The notes below the pieces were generated by a model. It did no database searches. It was not told where the DNA came from and was given only the letters and a program-made list of their open reading frames with translations. A stretch of DNA of 64,000 nucleotides, taken from Fusobacterium varium. GTDB taxonomy: Bacteria > Fusobacteriota > Fusobacteriia > Fusobacteriales > Fusobacteriaceae. The stretch is from assembly GCA_002356455.1 (NCBI GenBank), contig AP017968.1, forward strand, positions 2,542,001-2,606,000, read 5' to 3'. A program made the translations under genes and the position numbers. Below, piece after piece: positions 46,681 through 55,375 of the stretch. Numbering within the stretch: position 1 is the stretch's first letter; each line of letters opens with the position of its first letter.

Positions 46681-47517
46681 TTACTTTAGAAATTCTCCAT
46701 GACATATAGTTTCTGCTTTTCCAGACATAGTTATCTCATAATCTTCCCCTATTTCTATGAAAAGTTCTCCACCTTCAGCCAAAAGTTTTATTTTCTTTTC
46801 TTTTATTTTGCCTAATTTATGTGCTAGAGCTGCTGTTGCACAACATCCTGTTCCACACCCAAGTGTTCTTCCAGCTCCTCTTTCCCATGTTTTTATCATT
46901 ATAGTATCATCTGTCATTATTTTAGCAAAATTTACATTTGTCTTTTCAGGAAAGATATCATTTTTTTCCATAAGACTTCCTATTTCATTCACATCATATT
47001 CATCAAAATTTTCTACAAAAATAGTTGTATGTGGAACCCCCATAAGTACACTTGAGAAAATTACTTTTTTCTCTTTTATAAATATTTCTTCTTCCAGAAT
47101 ATTTTCTTTTTTTATAGTACAGGGAACTGCTCTTCCTCTGAAATCAATTTTCTCCATATCAACCTTAAGATATTCTATATCCCCCGAGATACCTATGTCA
47201 AGTTTTATATGCTTTATTCCTGCGTCTGTCTCTACTGAAAACTCATCTTTTGTTACAATTTTACTGTCATACACAAATTTTGCAAAACATCTTATTCCAT
47301 TCCCACACATCTCTCCTCTTGAGCCATCAGAATTATAATAACTCATTTTTATATCTGCGTTTGAACTTCTTTCACAAAACATAAGTCCATCTGCTCCTAT
47401 TCCAAAATGTCTATCACAAACTTTTTTTGCTGTTTCATTCCAATTTGAAGACTTTTCTATCATTCCATTCATAAGAATAAAATCATTCCCTGCTGCCTGC
47501 ATTTTTGAAAATTTCAT
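46681..47517 (-). CDS. dapF: Diaminopimelate epimerase
   Basis: 278 residues. Both catalytic cysteines are present: MCGNGIRC near residue 71 and LGCGTGCCA near residue 218; the GNDF motif is at the N-terminus. It converts LL- to meso-diaminopimelate for lysine and peptidoglycan synthesis. It follows the M20 deacetylase-like gene but a strong hairpin stands between, so it may be transcribed partly on its own. Confidence 0.97.
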   Translation of the reverse strand: MKFSKMQAAGNDFILMNGMIEKSSNWNETAKKVCDRHFGIGADGLMFCERSSNADIKMSYYNSDGSRGEMCGNGIRCFAKFVYDSKIVTKDEFSVETDAGIKHIKLDIGISGDIEYLKVDMEKIDFRGRAVPCTIKKENILEEEIFIKEKKVIFSSVLMGVPHTTIFVENFDEYDVNEIGSLMEKNDIFPEKTNVNFAKIMTDDTIMIKTWERGAGRTLGCGTGCCATAALAHKLGKIKEKKIKLLAEGGELFIEIGEDYEITMSGKAETICHGEFLK

Positions 47518-49010: not shown

Positions 49011-50315
49011 CTAAAGATCTATTAATACATCATTTCTAACAAGGTCTTCAAAACTTTCTTTTTTTATTGATAAAGCACTTTTTCTATCCTTAACAAATAC
49101 TACTGCTGGTCTTGGAGCTTTATTGTAGTTATTAGACATTGAATAACCATAAGCTCCTGTTGTTGCTACCAATATTAAATCACCTGTTTCAGCATTTGCC
49201 AGTTTTCCATTTTTAATTATCAAATCCCCAGATTCACAACATTTTCCTGCTATTGTTACTACATCTTCTGCTGCTTCATTTGCTTTATTTGCTACTATGG
49301 CCTCATACTCAGCTTGATATAAAGCTGGTCTTATATTATCAGTCATTCCTCCATCTATAAATATATATTTCACTCCACCATAAGTAGTTTTCGTTCCTCC
49401 AACTGTATACAAAGTACTTCCTGCATTTGCTACGATACTTCTTCCAGGTTCAATAGAAACTTTTTCTAATTTCATTTTTTCAGCTTCCAAACTTCTTTCT
49501 AAATGTTCTATCATAGATTTCATAAATTGTTCTACATCTATTGCAGTATCTTTTTCTGTATAATATACTCCAAACCCACCACCAAGGTTTATTTCTGGAA
49601 TATATATTCCTAAAGCTTCTGATATTTTTTTAGTTTCTTTTACCATTGACTCTATTCCTTCATGAAAAGCTTTAGTATCAAATATTTGAGAACCTATATG
49701 ACAATGAAAACCTAAAAATTCCATATTTTCATCTTTAACTATTTTTTCTATTATTTCTGTTATCCTGTCATCAAATATTGATTCTCCAAATTTTGATGAA
49801 TGTTTAGAAGTTTTTATATATTCATGTGTATGTGCATCTATTCCTATATTTATTCTCATCATAACTTTAACTTTTTTATTTTTTTCTTTACATATTTTTG
49901 ATAATCTTCCGATTTCCTCTTCATTATCAATAACAATACTTCCTATTTCATAATCAAGACACATTTTCAATTCTTCATCAGTTTTATTATTTCCATGCAT
50001 ATGAACTTTTTTCATAGGAAGCCCACTTGTTTTTATAGTATATAATTCTCCCCCAGATACAGCATCTATATCTATATCATATTTTTCAACTAATTGACAT
50101 ATAGCTTTTGATAAAAATGCTTTTGATGCATATACAATAGATGTACCAAATTTACTGCTTTTAAAATTATTTTTATATTTAATTATATTCTCTTCTATAA
50201 GGGCTTGATCCATTATATATAGAGGTGTACCATATTTCTCTGCTAATTCAGTAACTTTTATTCCCCCTATTTCCAGTATTCCGTTTTCTATTTTCATAGT
50301 ACCAAATAATTTCAT
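49011..50315 (-). CDS. lysA: Diaminopimelate decarboxylase
   Basis: 434 residues, fold-III PLP enzyme. The PLP Lys lies in VYASKAF near residue 64. GGGFGVYY and the C-terminal GKCCESGD (catalytic Cys) and TTGAYGYSMSNNYN motifs are intact. It makes L-lysine from meso-diaminopimelate. It lies downstream of a lysine riboswitch in a run of tightly spaced genes, which confirms the logic of that regulator. AGGAGG precedes the ATG. Confidence 0.97.
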   Translation of the reverse strand: MKLFGTMKIENGILEIGGIKVTELAEKYGTPLYIMDQALIEENIIKYKNNFKSSKFGTSIVYASKAFLSKAICQLVEKYDIDIDAVSGGELYTIKTSGLPMKKVHMHGNNKTDEELKMCLDYEIGSIVIDNEEEIGRLSKICKEKNKKVKVMMRINIGIDAHTHEYIKTSKHSSKFGESIFDDRITEIIEKIVKDENMEFLGFHCHIGSQIFDTKAFHEGIESMVKETKKISEALGIYIPEINLGGGFGVYYTEKDTAIDVEQFMKSMIEHLERSLEAEKMKLEKVSIEPGRSIVANAGSTLYTVGGTKTTYGGVKYIFIDGGMTDNIRPALYQAEYEAIVANKANEAAEDVVTIAGKCCESGDLIIKNGKLANAETGDLILVATTGAYGYSMSNNYNKAPRPAVVFVKDRKSALSIKKESFEDLVRNDVLIDL

Positions 50316-50362: not shown

Positions 50363-50797
50363 CTAATAAAGTTTTTTCTTTTTTGAAAAGTATATCTGAC
50401 ATATTGTAGAACCTAAAAGTATTCCTACTGCTATAGCTCCAGCTACTATAAATGTCTGTATTCCTTTTTGGACTGTCATCTGCATATCATTTTTTATGAG
50501 TCCATACATAGTGTAATAAACACCACTACCTGGAACTAGTGGGATAAACCCTCCAATAAGAAATGTTATTGCGGGAGATTTTAATTTTCTAGCCATTATT
50601 TCTGAATATATTGTCATTGATAAAGAAGCTGCCAGGAATGCTATTGCTTCTGATAAATTTACTTTTAATGATATCAAGTAAAAAAACCATCCTATTCCTC
50701 CACTTATTCCAGCATAGAACAGCTTTTTTTTATTTAATCCAAAAAGTATTCCAAATCCCAGAGTTGCTGCTATTGCTGCAGCTATTTGAACAATCAT
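50363..50797 (-). CDS. ThrE-type exporter, small subunit (DUF3815/ThrE_2)
   Basis: About 144 residues with four or five membrane segments (PLVPGSGVYYTMYGLI is the family signature). It corresponds to the C-terminal half of the Corynebacterium ThrE threonine/serine exporter, which is split in Firmicutes. The start at ATG 50797 is preceded by GGAGGG; the ATG at 50809 lies within that site. The partner half is immediately upstream. Under a lysine riboswitch its substrate may not be threonine (inference). Confidence 0.85.
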   Translation of the reverse strand: MIVQIAAAIAATLGFGILFGLNKKKLFYAGISGGIGWFFYLISLKVNLSEAIAFLAASLSMTIYSEIMARKLKSPAITFLIGGFIPLVPGSGVYYTMYGLIKNDMQMTVQKGIQTFIVAGAIAVGILLGSTICQIYFSKKKKLY

Positions 50798-50812
50798 TCT
50801 TCCCTCCATAAA

Positions 50813-51586
50813 TCAAAGAAAAATAGAAAGTATCATTCCTGATCCTGAAGCTAACGCTATCCCTGTAGTTACAGCTTCTACCCCTCTTGATATTCCTGAA
50901 ACAAAATCTCCAGCTATAATATCTCTTATTGAATTAGTAAAAGATATACCTGGAACAAGAAGCATCAAAGCAGAGATTATAGAAATAGATATATCCTCTA
51001 TAAAATTAAATTTGAAAAATGTCAATGAAATTATAGCTGCTGTTACTCCACCAATAAAATTAACAAAAAAATTATTTAACTTCAAATCCTTTATAAGCTC
51101 ATCTGTACATGCAAGGATGAAGGTAGAGATAAGAGCTACAATACTGTCTCTTATCCCTCCTTTAAAAAGTATAGCAAATGCACTTCCAACTAATACATTT
51201 CCTAGTATTTTTTTTCTAAAACTCATTTTATTTTCAGCTTCTATTTCCATTATTTTTTCTTTAACTTCTGATATCTTATATTCATCAAGATTTCGGGCTA
51301 TATGATTCAATCTGTCTACCTTGTCTAAATTCAAGGTTCTTAAATCTATCCTATCTACTTTTGAATATCTTTTTCCATCAAAAGAGTCTATTGAAGTAAT
51401 TATAGTATTTAAAGTAGCAAAACTATTTGCTTTTATTCCATAGTGCTCACATGTTCTTCTTATAGTTTCTTCTGTTCTATAAGTTTCACCACCATTTTGC
51501 AGTATTAATCTCCCCATATAACATGCTACAAAAAGGACACTATTTTCTTCTATCTTTTCTTTTGAAATACTATTTTTATTATTCAT
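50813..51586 (-). CDS. ThrE-type exporter, large subunit (DUF1212/ThrE_1)
   Basis: 257 residues. The soluble N-terminal half (about residues 1-115: GGETYRTEETIRRTCEHYG signature) is followed by five membrane segments with LVPGISFTNSIRDIIAGD. The N-terminal domain is hydrolase-like in ThrE and may face the cytosol. It is paired with the small subunit 3 bp downstream, and starts 3 bp after the S66 peptidase gene. Confidence 0.87.
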   Translation of the reverse strand: MNNKNSISKEKIEENSVLFVACYMGRLILQNGGETYRTEETIRRTCEHYGIKANSFATLNTIITSIDSFDGKRYSKVDRIDLRTLNLDKVDRLNHIARNLDEYKISEVKEKIMEIEAENKMSFRKKILGNVLVGSAFAILFKGGIRDSIVALISTFILACTDELIKDLKLNNFFVNFIGGVTAAIISLTFFKFNFIEDISISIISALMLLVPGISFTNSIRDIIAGDFVSGISRGVEAVTTGIALASGSGMILSIFL

Positions 51587-51589
51587 AGA

Positions 51590-52510
51590 TTATCTTACAA
51601 CCTTTTCTAATATTTTTATTTCTTTTACTGATGTATTTATTTTTACTTTTGCTCCTAAAGGAAGAGTTATCATAGGTTCGCTATGCCCAGATTCAAAATC
51701 ATAAACTACAGGTATTTTTAAGTTTGAAAGGTAGTCTTTAAACACTTCCATCAAAGACATATCATTTTCAGAATCTGCTGGACAATTTCTAAAATCTCCA
51801 AGTATGATTCCATTAATTTTTTCAAAGACTTTGAATTTTTTTAATTGATTCAGCATTCTGTCTATTTTATATGTTTTTTCTCCTATTTCCTCTAAGAAAA
51901 GTATTTTTCCAGTATAATCAACATCATAGTCTGTTCCAAGACTTGCTATCAAAGTAGCTAGATTTCCACCTATTATTTCTCCTTCTCCTATTCCTTCACA
52001 AAGCACTCCTAATTCTTTTGAGAAATTTTTTAATACCAATTCATCATTCTCATTCATAAGTACTTCTTCAAAACTTTTATAAGTATCTTCATTATATTCA
52101 CCAGAAAAATTACTTACAGCCATAGGTCCATGAAATGTTATAAGTCCTGTTTTTTGGAAAATTGCCATATGCAGAGTTGTTATGTCACTGTATCCTATAA
52201 AAATTTTAGGATTTTTTTTGATGATGGAATAATCTACCATTTCTATTAGTCTATTGCATCCATATCCACCCCTCATACAAATTATTCCATCTATATTGGG
52301 ATCAGCAAAAAAATCATTTATATCTTTTACTCTTATTTCTTCTGGACCAGCATATGAATACCATCTGCTTTTAGTACTTTCTCCAAGAATAACTTTAAAT
52401 CCCATTTTTTCAAGATTATTTTTTGCACTTTCTACTTTATCAATAGAAGTAAAGCTTGCTGGTGCAATAATACCCAAGGTATCACCTTTTTTAAGTTTAT
52501 TTCCTAACAC
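51590..52510 (-). CDS. S66 family LD-carboxypeptidase
   Basis: 306 residues with the LdcA-like fold: GDTLGIIAPAS at the N-terminus, the RGGYGCNRLI loop around the nucleophile, IGYSDITTLH, FHGPMAV, the catalytic Glu in LEEIGEKTYKIDRML, and His in GHSEPM. The enzyme removes the terminal D-Ala from murein tetrapeptides after the diaminoacid in peptidoglycan recycling. The residue after GGYG, Ser in most relatives I know, is Cys here. Sitting in a lysine-regulated operon, it may help recover diaminopimelate (inference). Confidence 0.88.
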   Translation of the reverse strand: MLGNKLKKGDTLGIIAPASFTSIDKVESAKNNLEKMGFKVILGESTKSRWYSYAGPEEIRVKDINDFFADPNIDGIICMRGGYGCNRLIEMVDYSIIKKNPKIFIGYSDITTLHMAIFQKTGLITFHGPMAVSNFSGEYNEDTYKSFEEVLMNENDELVLKNFSKELGVLCEGIGEGEIIGGNLATLIASLGTDYDVDYTGKILFLEEIGEKTYKIDRMLNQLKKFKVFEKINGIILGDFRNCPADSENDMSLMEVFKDYLSNLKIPVVYDFESGHSEPMITLPLGAKVKINTSVKEIKILEKVVR

Positions 52511-52528: not shown

Positions 52529-53068
52529 TTATCTAAACATTATATTACAAATCCATACTGCTGTTAGCAGTCCTGCTAAATCTGCTAAAAGTCCTGCTGC
52601 TACTGCATGTCTTGTCTTTCTTATACTTACTGCTCCAAAATACACTGCCAGTACATAGAATGTTGTTTCTGTTGATCCCATCATTGTTGAAGCTATTCTT
52701 CCTATTAATGAATCTGGTCCATATGTCAGCATAAGGTCATTCATTATTCCTGTTGCTCCTCCTCCTGACAATGGTCTCATTATTGCCATTGGCAATACTT
52801 CTCCCGGCATTCCTATCATTGAAAATATTGGATCCAATACTTTCATCATTATATCTATACATCCTGAGCTTCTGAATATTCCTATTGCTACCAGCATTGC
52901 CACTAGAAATGGTATTATTCTTATTGCTGTTGTAAATCCTTCCTTTGCTCCCTCACAAAATACTTCATATACTCTTACCTTCTTTACAAAGAACGCATAT
53001 CCTACTATTATAAATATTATCATTGGTATTGCATAAAGCGATATTTGATTCATTATCATTACAAACAT
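52529..53068 (-). CDS. SpmB-like nucleoside-recognition (Gate) domain membrane protein
   Basis: 179 residues with about four or five membrane segments and the Gate-domain regions FLVAMLVAIGIFRSSGCID and AIMRPLSGGGATGIMND, followed by GSTETTFYVLAVYFGA. Named spore maturation protein B in Bacillus, but Fusobacteria do not sporulate. It pairs with the SpmA-like gene 30 bp upstream and is placed directly behind the lysine riboswitch, so a transport role linked to lysine or diaminopimelate is more likely (inference). Confidence 0.85.
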   Translation of the reverse strand: MFVMIMNQISLYAIPMIIFIIVGYAFFVKKVRVYEVFCEGAKEGFTTAIRIIPFLVAMLVAIGIFRSSGCIDIMMKVLDPIFSMIGMPGEVLPMAIMRPLSGGGATGIMNDLMLTYGPDSLIGRIASTMMGSTETTFYVLAVYFGAVSIRKTRHAVAAGLLADLAGLLTAVWICNIMFR

Positions 53069-53098: not shown

Positions 53099-53695
53099 TT
53101 AAATTTCTTCTCTTTTAAATGATGGTAACTTTTGCAGAATTTTACAAGCTATTATTCCAACAGTTGTCGAAACTATTGTCGCAACTATTGTTGGAGCTAT
53201 AACCTCTGCTGCATTTGCTGAACCTGCTGCTGTTCTGTATGCTATTACACTTGAAGATATAAGAGTTACAGATGAAGTATTTATTGCTAAAAACATTACC
53301 ATTGCATTTGATGCCTCATCCTTATTTGTATTCAGTTCCTGTAATTCCTGCATAGCTTTTATTCCAAGAGGTGTCGCTGCATTTCCAAGTCCAAAAAAGT
53401 TTGCTGCCATATTGGCAACCATACTTCCCATTGCTGGATGATCTGCTGGCACTTCTGGAAATAATCTTATCATAAGAGGCTTCATTGCTTTTCCCATAGC
53501 CTTTACCAATCCTGCCTCTTCAGCTATCTTCATAAGTCCAAGCCACAATGCCATTACCCCTACCAGTCCTATTGATATCTCCACTGCTGTTCCTGCTGAA
53601 GATATTGCTGAGTCTGTCACTGCCTGAATCTTTCCAGTAAATATAGATACTACCACTCCAATAATTATCATTCCACACCAAATTGCATTAATCAT
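53099..53695 (-). CDS. SpmA-like nucleoside-recognition (Gate) domain membrane protein
   Basis: 198 residues with four or five membrane segments and the family stretch MVANMAANFFGLGNAATPLGIKA. It is the first gene after the lysine riboswitch leader; its ATG is preceded by GGAGG. SpmA and SpmB are always paired and probably make one complex. The sporulation name cannot describe the function here. Confidence 0.87.
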   Translation of the reverse strand: MINAIWCGMIIIGVVVSIFTGKIQAVTDSAISSAGTAVEISIGLVGVMALWLGLMKIAEEAGLVKAMGKAMKPLMIRLFPEVPADHPAMGSMVANMAANFFGLGNAATPLGIKAMQELQELNTNKDEASNAMVMFLAINTSSVTLISSSVIAYRTAAGSANAAEVIAPTIVATIVSTTVGIIACKILQKLPSFKREEI

Positions 53696-54018: not shown

Positions 54019-54034
54019 TGAATTCTCTTTCCCA

Positions 54035-54204
54035 CAGATAGCACTCCATTGATAATCAATGACAGTAATGTAGATTTTATCTACCTTACCAACAAAAGAA
54101 AGTGGCTAACTCTTCTTTCATTTCGGCAAAATTCCCTTTCTAACTATTTTAAAACGCCTGCCAGACTAGTATAGTTATACTTTTGTTTTCTGCTCCTCTA
54201 TCTA
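54035..54204 (-). promoter_or_regulatory. Lysine riboswitch (L-box) aptamer
   Basis: Read on the minus strand, the conserved L-box elements appear in the right order. They are AGATAGAGG(A)GC at the 5' side (helix P1 with CTATCT at the 3' side), AGTATA, GGGAATTTTGCCGAAA, TTTGTTGG, ACTGTCATTGATTATC and GGAGTGCTATCT. These form the lysine-binding five-way junction. In this family lysine binding favours the downstream terminator and switches the operon off. Genes in line are spmA, spmB, S66, ThrE halves and lysA, so the call fits the genes it controls. Confidence 0.94.
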
Positions 54205-54223
54205 AATCAATATTATAGGATTG

Positions 54224-54276: not shown

Positions 54277-54320
54277 AAAAAAATAAAAATAGAGTAATAT
54301 ATTAATCTCTATTACTCTAT
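54277..54320 (-). terminator. Rho-independent terminator of the MurI-like gene
   Basis: A perfect 11-bp stem (54289-54299 with 54310-54320) followed by a long T run on the minus strand, 26 bp after the stop and just before the lysine promoter. Confidence 0.88.
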
Positions 54321-54346
54321 CTCTAAATAAAAATTTATAATTTTTA

Positions 54347-55138
54347 TCAATATAGTGAAAACATATTTGTTATTTCCTCTTTTTCAAAAAGTTGCTCTGC
54401 CACATCCTTAAAAACTTCTTTATCTCCATTGATATAAAATTCTATTCTCCCTTTTTTATATCCTTCTCTCAATAAATCTTCCTGTCCTAATACTCTAAAT
54501 AATTCTATGGCACTCTCAACTGAAGAATCTACTATTTTTTTACTGAAAAATTTTCTTATATCACTAAGAATAAAAGGGTAATGTGTTCCTCCTAAAATTA
54601 AAGTATCTGCTGTACTTGGTATTTGACATAGATAGCCTTCCAATATTTCCATTCTATCAGGATAATTTTCCCATCCTTTTTCCAACATTGTGCATAAAGC
54701 TTTACATGAAATTTGATATACAGTTATATCAGAATCTATTTTTTTTATACTTTCTTCATACACATTAGACTTTATAGTAAAAGCTGAACCCATAACTGCT
54801 ATTTTCTTTTGTTTGCTTTCTAGTATAGCTGACTTTACTCCTCCTTCTATCATTCCAATTATTGGAATATTATATTGAGATTTAAGAAAATCCAAAGAGG
54901 CAGCTGAAAAAATACTGCAGCCAATAACCACAGCCTTACAGTTATTTCTAATAAGAAAGTCCATTATTTTTGCACTTAAATTTTGTATATCTTCTTTACT
55001 TTTTTCACTATATGGATTATTTTTCCAATCACCATAATAAATTATATTTTCTCTTGGAAGTAACTCTCTTATTTTTTTTAAAATAGTTAACCCACCTATT
55101 CCAGAATCAAAAATTCCTATAGACGACTCTTTATTCAT
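54347..55138 (-). CDS. Glutamate racemase family protein (MurI-like) lacking the second catalytic Cys
   Basis: 263 residues with the MurI fold: GIFDSGIGGLTILKKI at the N-terminus (acid-base Asp/Ser), YYGDWKNNPYSEKS and the two half-site motifs. MurI makes D-glutamate for murein using two cysteines as opposing acid-base groups. Here the first motif reads GCSIFSAAS (usually CNTAS) and the second reads GGTHYP (usually GCTHYP), so the second Cys is Gly. The codon is GGA with clean flanking frame. Racemase activity of the standard kind is therefore doubtful. It has its own terminator. Confidence 0.85.
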   Translation of the reverse strand: MNKESSIGIFDSGIGGLTILKKIRELLPRENIIYYGDWKNNPYSEKSKEDIQNLSAKIMDFLIRNNCKAVVIGCSIFSAASLDFLKSQYNIPIIGMIEGGVKSAILESKQKKIAVMGSAFTIKSNVYEESIKKIDSDITVYQISCKALCTMLEKGWENYPDRMEILEGYLCQIPSTADTLILGGTHYPFILSDIRKFFSKKIVDSSVESAIELFRVLGQEDLLREGYKKGRIEFYINGDKEVFKDVAEQLFEKEEITNMFSLY

Positions 55139-55240
55139 AATTTATGCACCTCTTTCCCAAAACACTATATTAAATTATACCTTTTTATTTATTTTATGAC
55201 AACTATAAATTTATTTTTTATTTGTTTTTCAAAATATTTG

Positions 55241-55268
55241 TTGACAGAATAATTATATATGTTATAAT
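55241..55268 (+). promoter_or_regulatory. Near-consensus plus-strand promoter with no gene downstream
   Basis: TTGACA (55241-55246) and TATAAT (55263-55268) with a 16-bp spacer. No open reading frame follows; a hairpin lies about 50 bp later. Confidence 0.65.
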
Positions 55269-55274
55269 AATATT

Positions 55275-55350
55275 GTCATAGGACATTTCCTTAAATTACA
55301 TTTTAATTTCTACGAACAAAAGCTCTCACTCTCAAGGGAGCTTTTGTTGT
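55275..55350 (+). ncRNA. Candidate small RNA
   Basis: Predicted transcript of roughly 75 nt from the strong promoter at 55241, with a small TGTC/GACA hairpin and ending in an 11-bp perfect stem (55315-55325 with 55338-55348, AACAAAAGCTC arm). The T tract after it is weak. I do not recognise a known RNA family. It ends where phage-type sequence begins. Confidence 0.35.
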
Positions 55351-55375
55351 ATGTTTGAGAAGATTGATAAAAAAA

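What the first reader, a model, noticed from the sequence alone, without database searches (positions are those of the whole stretch)
54347..55138. MurI homologue without its second catalytic cysteine
The GCTHYP motif reads GGTHYP and CNTAS reads CSIFS, so one catalytic Cys and substrate-binding residues are changed, while the fold is otherwise well kept and the gene has a clean terminator. Glutamate racemase needs both cysteines, so it may be a pseudoenzyme, a regulator or a racemase or isomerase of another substrate. A normal MurI would then be needed elsewhere.
Basis: partly seen in the sequence, partly recalled or inferred. Interest (0 to 1): 0.58.

Follow-up and report, generated by a model that had tools for sequence, protein, structure and literature searches.

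The report
Conserved single-cysteine relative of glutamate racemase
This gene encodes a close relative of a cell-wall enzyme that swaps the handedness of glutamate, but it has lost one of the two residues needed for that job and has been kept intact in several related bacteria, which suggests it now does something else that has yet to be tested.

Summary
The 263-aa gene at 54347-55138 (-) is MurI-like over its full length, keeps Cys74, and has Gly184 where MurI has its second catalytic Cys; CNTA reads CSIF. It is not a sequencing error: 11 of 98 Fusobacteriota genomes (2 of 29 genera) carry the same signature, with three different Gly codons at 184. dN/dS is 0.03-0.10, as low as in the canonical copies. 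The 11 form one clade. Of 27 positions nearly invariant in canonical MurI, 22 are kept in all 11 (including D11, S12, C74, E153, T185, H186); losses centre on the active site (N75, T118, C184; also T76). lysA lies within 4.5 kb in 8 of 11 carriers, and a lysine riboswitch operon follows the gene in four. Best reading: a neofunctionalised one-base enzyme using Cys74 on another acid, formally the mirror of arylmalonate decarboxylase (Gly74/Cys188). A catalytically dead sensor or regulator is the main rival. Substrate and activity are untested. The curated model TIGR00067 still scores it as glutamate racemase, which is probably wrong.

The parts
54347..55138 (-). MurI-like gene, 263 aa, Cys74 kept, Gly184 in place of the second catalytic Cys
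54587..54589 (-). codon 184, GGA = Gly, at the position of the second catalytic Cys
   Evidence: aligned column is Cys in 125 of 136 MurI-like proteins and Gly in the 11 of this clade
54908..54919 (-). codons 74-77, C-S-I-F (canonical C-N-T-A)
54284..54325 (-). intrinsic terminator hairpin after the gene, 16-bp stem, then a U-rich tail
   Evidence: z -4.55
55252..55279 (-). promoter-like site ATGACA-16-TATAAT upstream of the gene (11 of 12)
   Evidence: consensus match only
55174..55202 (-). promoter-like site TTGTCA-17-TATAAT upstream of the gene (11 of 12)
   Evidence: consensus match only
54031..54208 (-). lysine riboswitch aptamer between this gene and the next operon (belongs to the next operon)
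   Evidence: 111.2 bits against gathering 30; also in L028, L029, L030
53950..53975 (-). terminator-like hairpin after the riboswitch aptamer, likely its expression platform
   Evidence: role inferred
53099..53695 (-). neighbour: Gate-domain membrane protein (first of pair)
52529..53068 (-). neighbour: Gate-domain membrane protein (second of pair)
51590..52510 (-). neighbour: peptidase S66, LD-carboxypeptidase family
50363..51586 (-). neighbours: ThrE and ThrE_2 exporter halves
49011..50315 (-). neighbour: lysA, diaminopimelate decarboxylase
   Evidence: TIGR01048 446.1 bits against cut-off 297.9
46681..47517 (-). neighbour: dapF-family gene

Best explanation
A duplicated MurI in the Fusobacteriaceae lost two-base glutamate racemisation and became a one-base enzyme. 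Shown: Cys74 and most of the conserved MurI residues are kept, the second Cys is Gly in every member, and the changes that mark the clade lie at positions 75-77, 118 and 184 (plus 19 and 114). Inferred: Cys74 still works from the face on which MurI attacks the D-enantiomer; with no acid opposite, the carbanion or enediolate it makes or quenches leads to elimination, decarboxylation or a one-way isomerisation instead of balanced racemisation; and the pocket, with N75S, T76I/L, A77F/M/I and T118S/N, takes a substrate other than glutamate. The nearby lysA and lysine-riboswitch operon make an amino acid or diacid of lysine, diaminopimelate or wall-peptide metabolism the first candidates. Neither substrate nor reaction is shown.
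For: Signature in 11 of 98 genomes, reversed control in none. Clade of 11 supported 100/99 and 100 SH-aLRT in a second tree. dN/dS 0.03-0.10 over nine pairs, against 0.04-0.22 over seven pairs of the canonical copies. Of 27 positions at least 95% invariant in 125 canonical proteins, 22 are kept in all 11, including D11, S12, D37, C74, T121, E153, T185, H186; the five not kept in all are G44, A73, N75, T118, C184. MurI fold, Z 38.4 to 2dwu_B, rmsd 1.4, model pLDDT 92.9. Two canonical MurI copies free this one from the old role. Precedents, read as passages: arylmalonate decarboxylase uses one Cys opposite Gly, and engineered variants with Cys at 74 and Gly, Ala or Ser at 188 decarboxylate with opposite selectivity, though the first such variant was 20,000-fold slower until the pocket was reshaped (PMC12576825; PMC4996985); EcL-DER (Thr/Cys) is one-way, a Cys-to-Thr change turns a hydroxyproline epimerase into a dehydratase, and Cys74 deprotonates R-glutamate (PMC8142540).
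Against: No activity, ligand or structure was measured. Loss of N75 and T76 changes a carboxylate site that a catalyst might still need. The precedent enzymes differ in sequence, and a binding protein could keep the same pocket. The lysA link is absent in the visible neighbourhoods of G011 and G060 and cannot be seen in G056 (contig edge); members of one genus are not independent.
Confidence: 0.5

Rival explanations
1. Catalytically dead pseudoenzyme that binds an amino acid or a partner protein and works as a sensor or regulator, for example of wall-precursor or lysine supply.
For: The second catalytic Cys, N75 and T76 are gone in all 11; the gene looks like its own transcription unit beside a lysine-controlled operon.
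Against: Cys74, D11, E153, T185 and H186 are invariant in all 11, which a mere binding role would not require; the model shows no added domain.
Confidence: 0.3
2. One-way or slow racemase: water or T185/H186 stands in for the second Cys, so D-enantiomers of glutamate or another amino acid are turned into L.
For: Unequal Cys/Thr pairs exist in EcL-DER and MMP0739 (PMC8142540, passages); F. nucleatum is said to deplete D-histidine from media (PMC11602996, passage).
Against: The residue is Gly, with no acid side chain, in 11 of 11; single-Cys MurI mutants are recalled, not read, to be non-racemising.
Confidence: 0.12
3. Ordinary MurI with an odd sequence, a sequencing error, or a decaying pseudogene.
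For: TIGR00067 score over cut-off.
Against: Same Gly in 11 genomes through three codons, dN/dS 0.03-0.10, two other MurI copies in the genome.
Confidence: 0.05

Closest known systems
Glutamate racemase MurI / RacE (TIGR00067; B. anthracis RacE1, PDB 2dwu)
   Same: Length, fold (Z 38.4, rmsd 1.4, 259 residues), FDSG, NPY, Cys74, E153, THYP
   Different: Second catalytic Cys is Gly; N75S, T76I/L, T118S/N; the genome already has two normal copies
Arylmalonate decarboxylase (AMDase, EC 4.1.1.76)
   Same: Same superfamily; one catalytic Cys facing a Gly (PMC4996985, passages)
   Different: Cys and Gly have swapped sides; AMDase motifs LMGTSLSF and ILLSCGGL are absent; the sequence belongs with MurI
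EcL-DER (YgeA) and MMP0739 aspartate/glutamate racemases
   Same: Natural members with an unequal catalytic pair, one Cys only (PMC8142540, passages)
   Different: They have Thr at the lost position and are aspartate/glutamate racemases, not MurI
Ilyobacter CSVA-type MurI beside a glutamate symporter (L187, L188, L189)
   Same: Divergent Fusobacteriaceae MurI paralogue with Ser75 and a hydrophobic residue 76
   Different: Keeps the second Cys; separate branch

Membership tests
Glutamate racemase (MurI, EC 5.1.1.3) | Matches the family model above its cut-off | tested here: met
   TIGR00067 191.1 against 146.65 bits
Glutamate racemase (MurI, EC 5.1.1.3) | Glutamate racemase fold | tested here: met
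   Z 38.4 to 2dwu_B
Glutamate racemase (MurI, EC 5.1.1.3) | Two catalytic cysteines | tested here: not met
   C74 present, position 184 Gly in all 11 members
Glutamate racemase (MurI, EC 5.1.1.3) | Asn and Thr (or Ser) after the first Cys, as in nearly all canonical copies | tested here: not met
   S75 and I/L76 in all 11; N75 in 121 of 125 and T76 in 114 of 125 canonical
Glutamate racemase (MurI, EC 5.1.1.3) | Racemises glutamate | not testable with these tools
   needs an assay
Asp/Glu/hydantoin racemase superfamily (PF01177) | Model score above gathering cut-off | tested here: met
   51.8 against 31 bits
Arylmalonate decarboxylase | Gly at 74 and Cys at 188 (AMDase numbering) | tested here: not met
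   Cys74 and Gly184 here, the reverse; criteria from PMC4996985 Table 4 passage
Arylmalonate decarboxylase | Motifs LMGTSLSF and ILLSCGGL | tested here: not met
   IGCSIFSA and LILGGTHY at the corresponding places, matched by eye
Unequal-pair racemases (EcL-DER, MMP0739) | One catalytic Cys replaced by Thr | tested here: not met
   replaced by Gly

The most novel reading that the evidence does not exclude
A natural mirror-image counterpart of arylmalonate decarboxylase built on the MurI scaffold: a cofactor-free enzyme with Cys74 facing Gly184 that decarboxylates or eliminates a D-configured or malonate-like acid in lysine, diaminopimelate or wall-peptide metabolism.
Probability: 0.12. Interest if true: 0.75.

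Novelty: new variant of a known kind. Interest (0 to 1): 0.5.

Why it matters
It would be a natural test of what a two-base racemase becomes when one base is deleted; the arrangement with the lone Cys on this face is known to me, from the passages read here, only in engineered decarboxylases. It also warns that score-based models call glutamate racemases without checking the catalytic pair, so this genome would be credited with three when two are likely, which matters for MurI as a drug target.

Tried and rejected
Replacement of DapF by this gene: rejected, a DapF-family gene over the cut-off is present in all 11 carriers. Sequencing error and pseudogene: rejected. Spread outside Fusobacteriota: the genome-contig scan with the 11-member profile kept 80 loci, best 40% identity; among the 136 MurI-like proteins read from the loci none outside the 11 lacks the second Cys (that script required the DSGxGG and [TS]H[YF]P motifs, so more degraded relatives would be missed). 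The pattern, lengthened by one codon, hit 1 of 398 genomes of the phylum of a Eubacterium-labelled genome, with 5 genomes hit by the reversed control; that one hit (L190) lies in no reading frame of 60 aa or more with the motif. Other phyla were not sampled in this way. Arylmalonate decarboxylase does not appear among the 50 entries shown by the structure comparison, which proves nothing. Ten paper searches showed no report of a natural single-Cys MurI in their listings; the library is open-access only, so this is weak. Work on glutamate racemisation in Fusobacterium varium is recalled and was not found in the library. Recalled and not read here: the roles of N75, T76, T118, D11, E153 and H186 in binding and acid-base help, the elimination activity of single-Cys MurI mutants, and the lysA-ygeA neighbourhood of E. 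coli. The second structure job was not used.

Full report
What is there. The ORF at 54347-55138 on the minus strand encodes 263 aa. It matches glutamate racemase nearly over its whole length (TIGR00067, residues 7-250, 191.1 bits against a cut-off of 146.65) and Pfam Asp_Glu_race (51.8 against 31).

Other copies in the genome. Six PF01177 places are found. Two, L003 and L004, are MurI proteins of 263 aa with both cysteines and TIGR00067 scores of 224.8 and 226.4. L004 lies beside a sodium/glutamate symporter gene. Two others are of the amino-acid-racemase type (L001, L002), one matches no NCBIfam model (L006), and one is the gene in question.

Not an error, not decay. A DNA pattern for GGTHYP occurs in 11 of 98 Fusobacteriota genomes, in 2 of 29 genera, once per genome, always in this gene, with no control hit. 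A profile of the 11 gives 484 bits or more to these and 325 or less to everything else in the 98 genomes. Five are from the window's own genus (75-100% identical, the window included) and six from a second genus of the family (54-56%). Codon 184 is GGA, GGT or GGG across the 11, always Gly, and Cys74 varies only between TGC and TGT. Nei-Gojobori dN/dS is 0.03 to 0.10 over nine pairs within the clade and 0.04 to 0.22 over seven pairs of the canonical copies (dS above 1 makes the more distant pairs rough).

Where the change lies. Among 136 MurI-like proteins read from the loci fetched by then, 125 have Cys at 184 and 11 have Gly; the 11 are this clade. Positions where a residue held by at least 80% of the canonical proteins is absent from the clade are 19, 75, 76, 77, 114, 118 and 184. 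Of 27 positions at least 95% invariant in the 125, 22 are unchanged in all 11. The divergence is thus centred on the active site while the frame is kept. Trees place the 11 as one clade, 100/99 in the careful tree of 53 rows and 100 SH-aLRT in a quick tree of 67 rows, beside other Fusobacteriaceae MurI. A single origin of Gly184 is the simplest reading; transfer between the two genera is not excluded.

Fold. AlphaFold2 on 53 sequences gives pLDDT 92.9 and pTM 0.89. The best solved match is glutamate racemase RacE1, Z 38.4, rmsd 1.4 over 259 residues.

Surroundings. The gene has promoter-like sites and a terminator of its own. The next operon on the same strand opens with a lysine riboswitch and encodes two Gate-domain proteins, an LD-carboxypeptidase-family peptidase, ThrE exporter halves, lysA, an amidohydrolase and a DapF-family protein. 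The order from this gene to the amidohydrolase, and the riboswitch, are kept in G008, G009 and G010. In G011 the gene precedes a ClcA-type gene instead. In the second genus it is divergent from lysA in four genomes (G053, G054, G055, G058; gaps 141-239 bp), while in G060 other genes flank it and in G056 the contig ends. In sum lysA is within 4.5 kb in 8 of 11 genomes. No lysine riboswitch reached the threshold in the five second-genus loci searched (L052-L055, L057). In Cetobacterium-type genomes a canonical extra MurI is divergent from a lysA copy too (the name is inferred from the record length and positions that match G020). The association is suggestive; it amounts to two or three independent cases.

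Which organism. 

Mechanism. Read as passages: in MurI Cys74 deprotonates R-glutamate and Cys185 S-glutamate; family members with one Cys replaced by Thr are one-way, and in another fold a Cys-to-Thr change makes a dehydratase (PMC8142540). Arylmalonate decarboxylase has Gly74 and Cys188 (PMC4996985), and variants with Cys at 74 and Gly, Ala or Ser at 188 decarboxylate with reversed selectivity, slowly until the pocket was reshaped (PMC12576825). The window protein has that engineered arrangement naturally. I infer a one-base enzyme acting from the Cys74 face on a substrate other than glutamate. Decarboxylase, lyase or one-way isomerase cannot be told apart here, and a binding-only role remains the main rival.

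Membership. It is a MurI by descent and fold but fails the two-cysteine requirement, so I do not file it as a glutamate racemase; it fails the AMDase criteria as well. It is best called a single-cysteine MurI-like subfamily.

Verdict. Real, conserved, selected and unexplained at the level of substrate; a new variant of a known kind.

Noticed in passing
window 55241-55352 (+): Candidate small RNA divergent from the gene: perfect TTGACA-16-TATAAT promoter, about 75 nt, 13-bp terminator hairpin (z -5.77). Identical over 88-89 matched bases in G008-G010 and 90% in G011; parts occur in other genomes of the genus; no Rfam match. Not matched to a named Fusobacterium small RNA.
   Followed up: partly
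window 55295-55352 and G000:C1 near 2637524 (L221 9525-9582): Exact 58-bp repeat flanking about 40 kb with phage genes, and a phage integrase gene next to the far copy: a prophage seems to have integrated at the terminator of the small RNA candidate. G009 shows the same pattern, with the repeat about 38 kb away and a similar gene beside it.
   Followed up: yes
L187, L188, L189 (G040, G042, G041): Another divergent MurI paralogue: C-S-V-A and HYEN in place of PYG, but both cysteines kept, next to a glutamate symporter gene.
   Followed up: partly
L167, L168, L169: Cetobacterium-type genomes carry an extra canonical MurI next to a DcuC-family carrier and divergent from lysA.
   Followed up: partly
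L030 12147-13450: lysA of G010 is split into two reading frames of 151 and 283 aa.
   Followed up: no
G000:C1:826719 region (L004): The second canonical MurI lies beside a glutamate symporter gene, which would fit glutamate uptake with racemisation.
   Followed up: no
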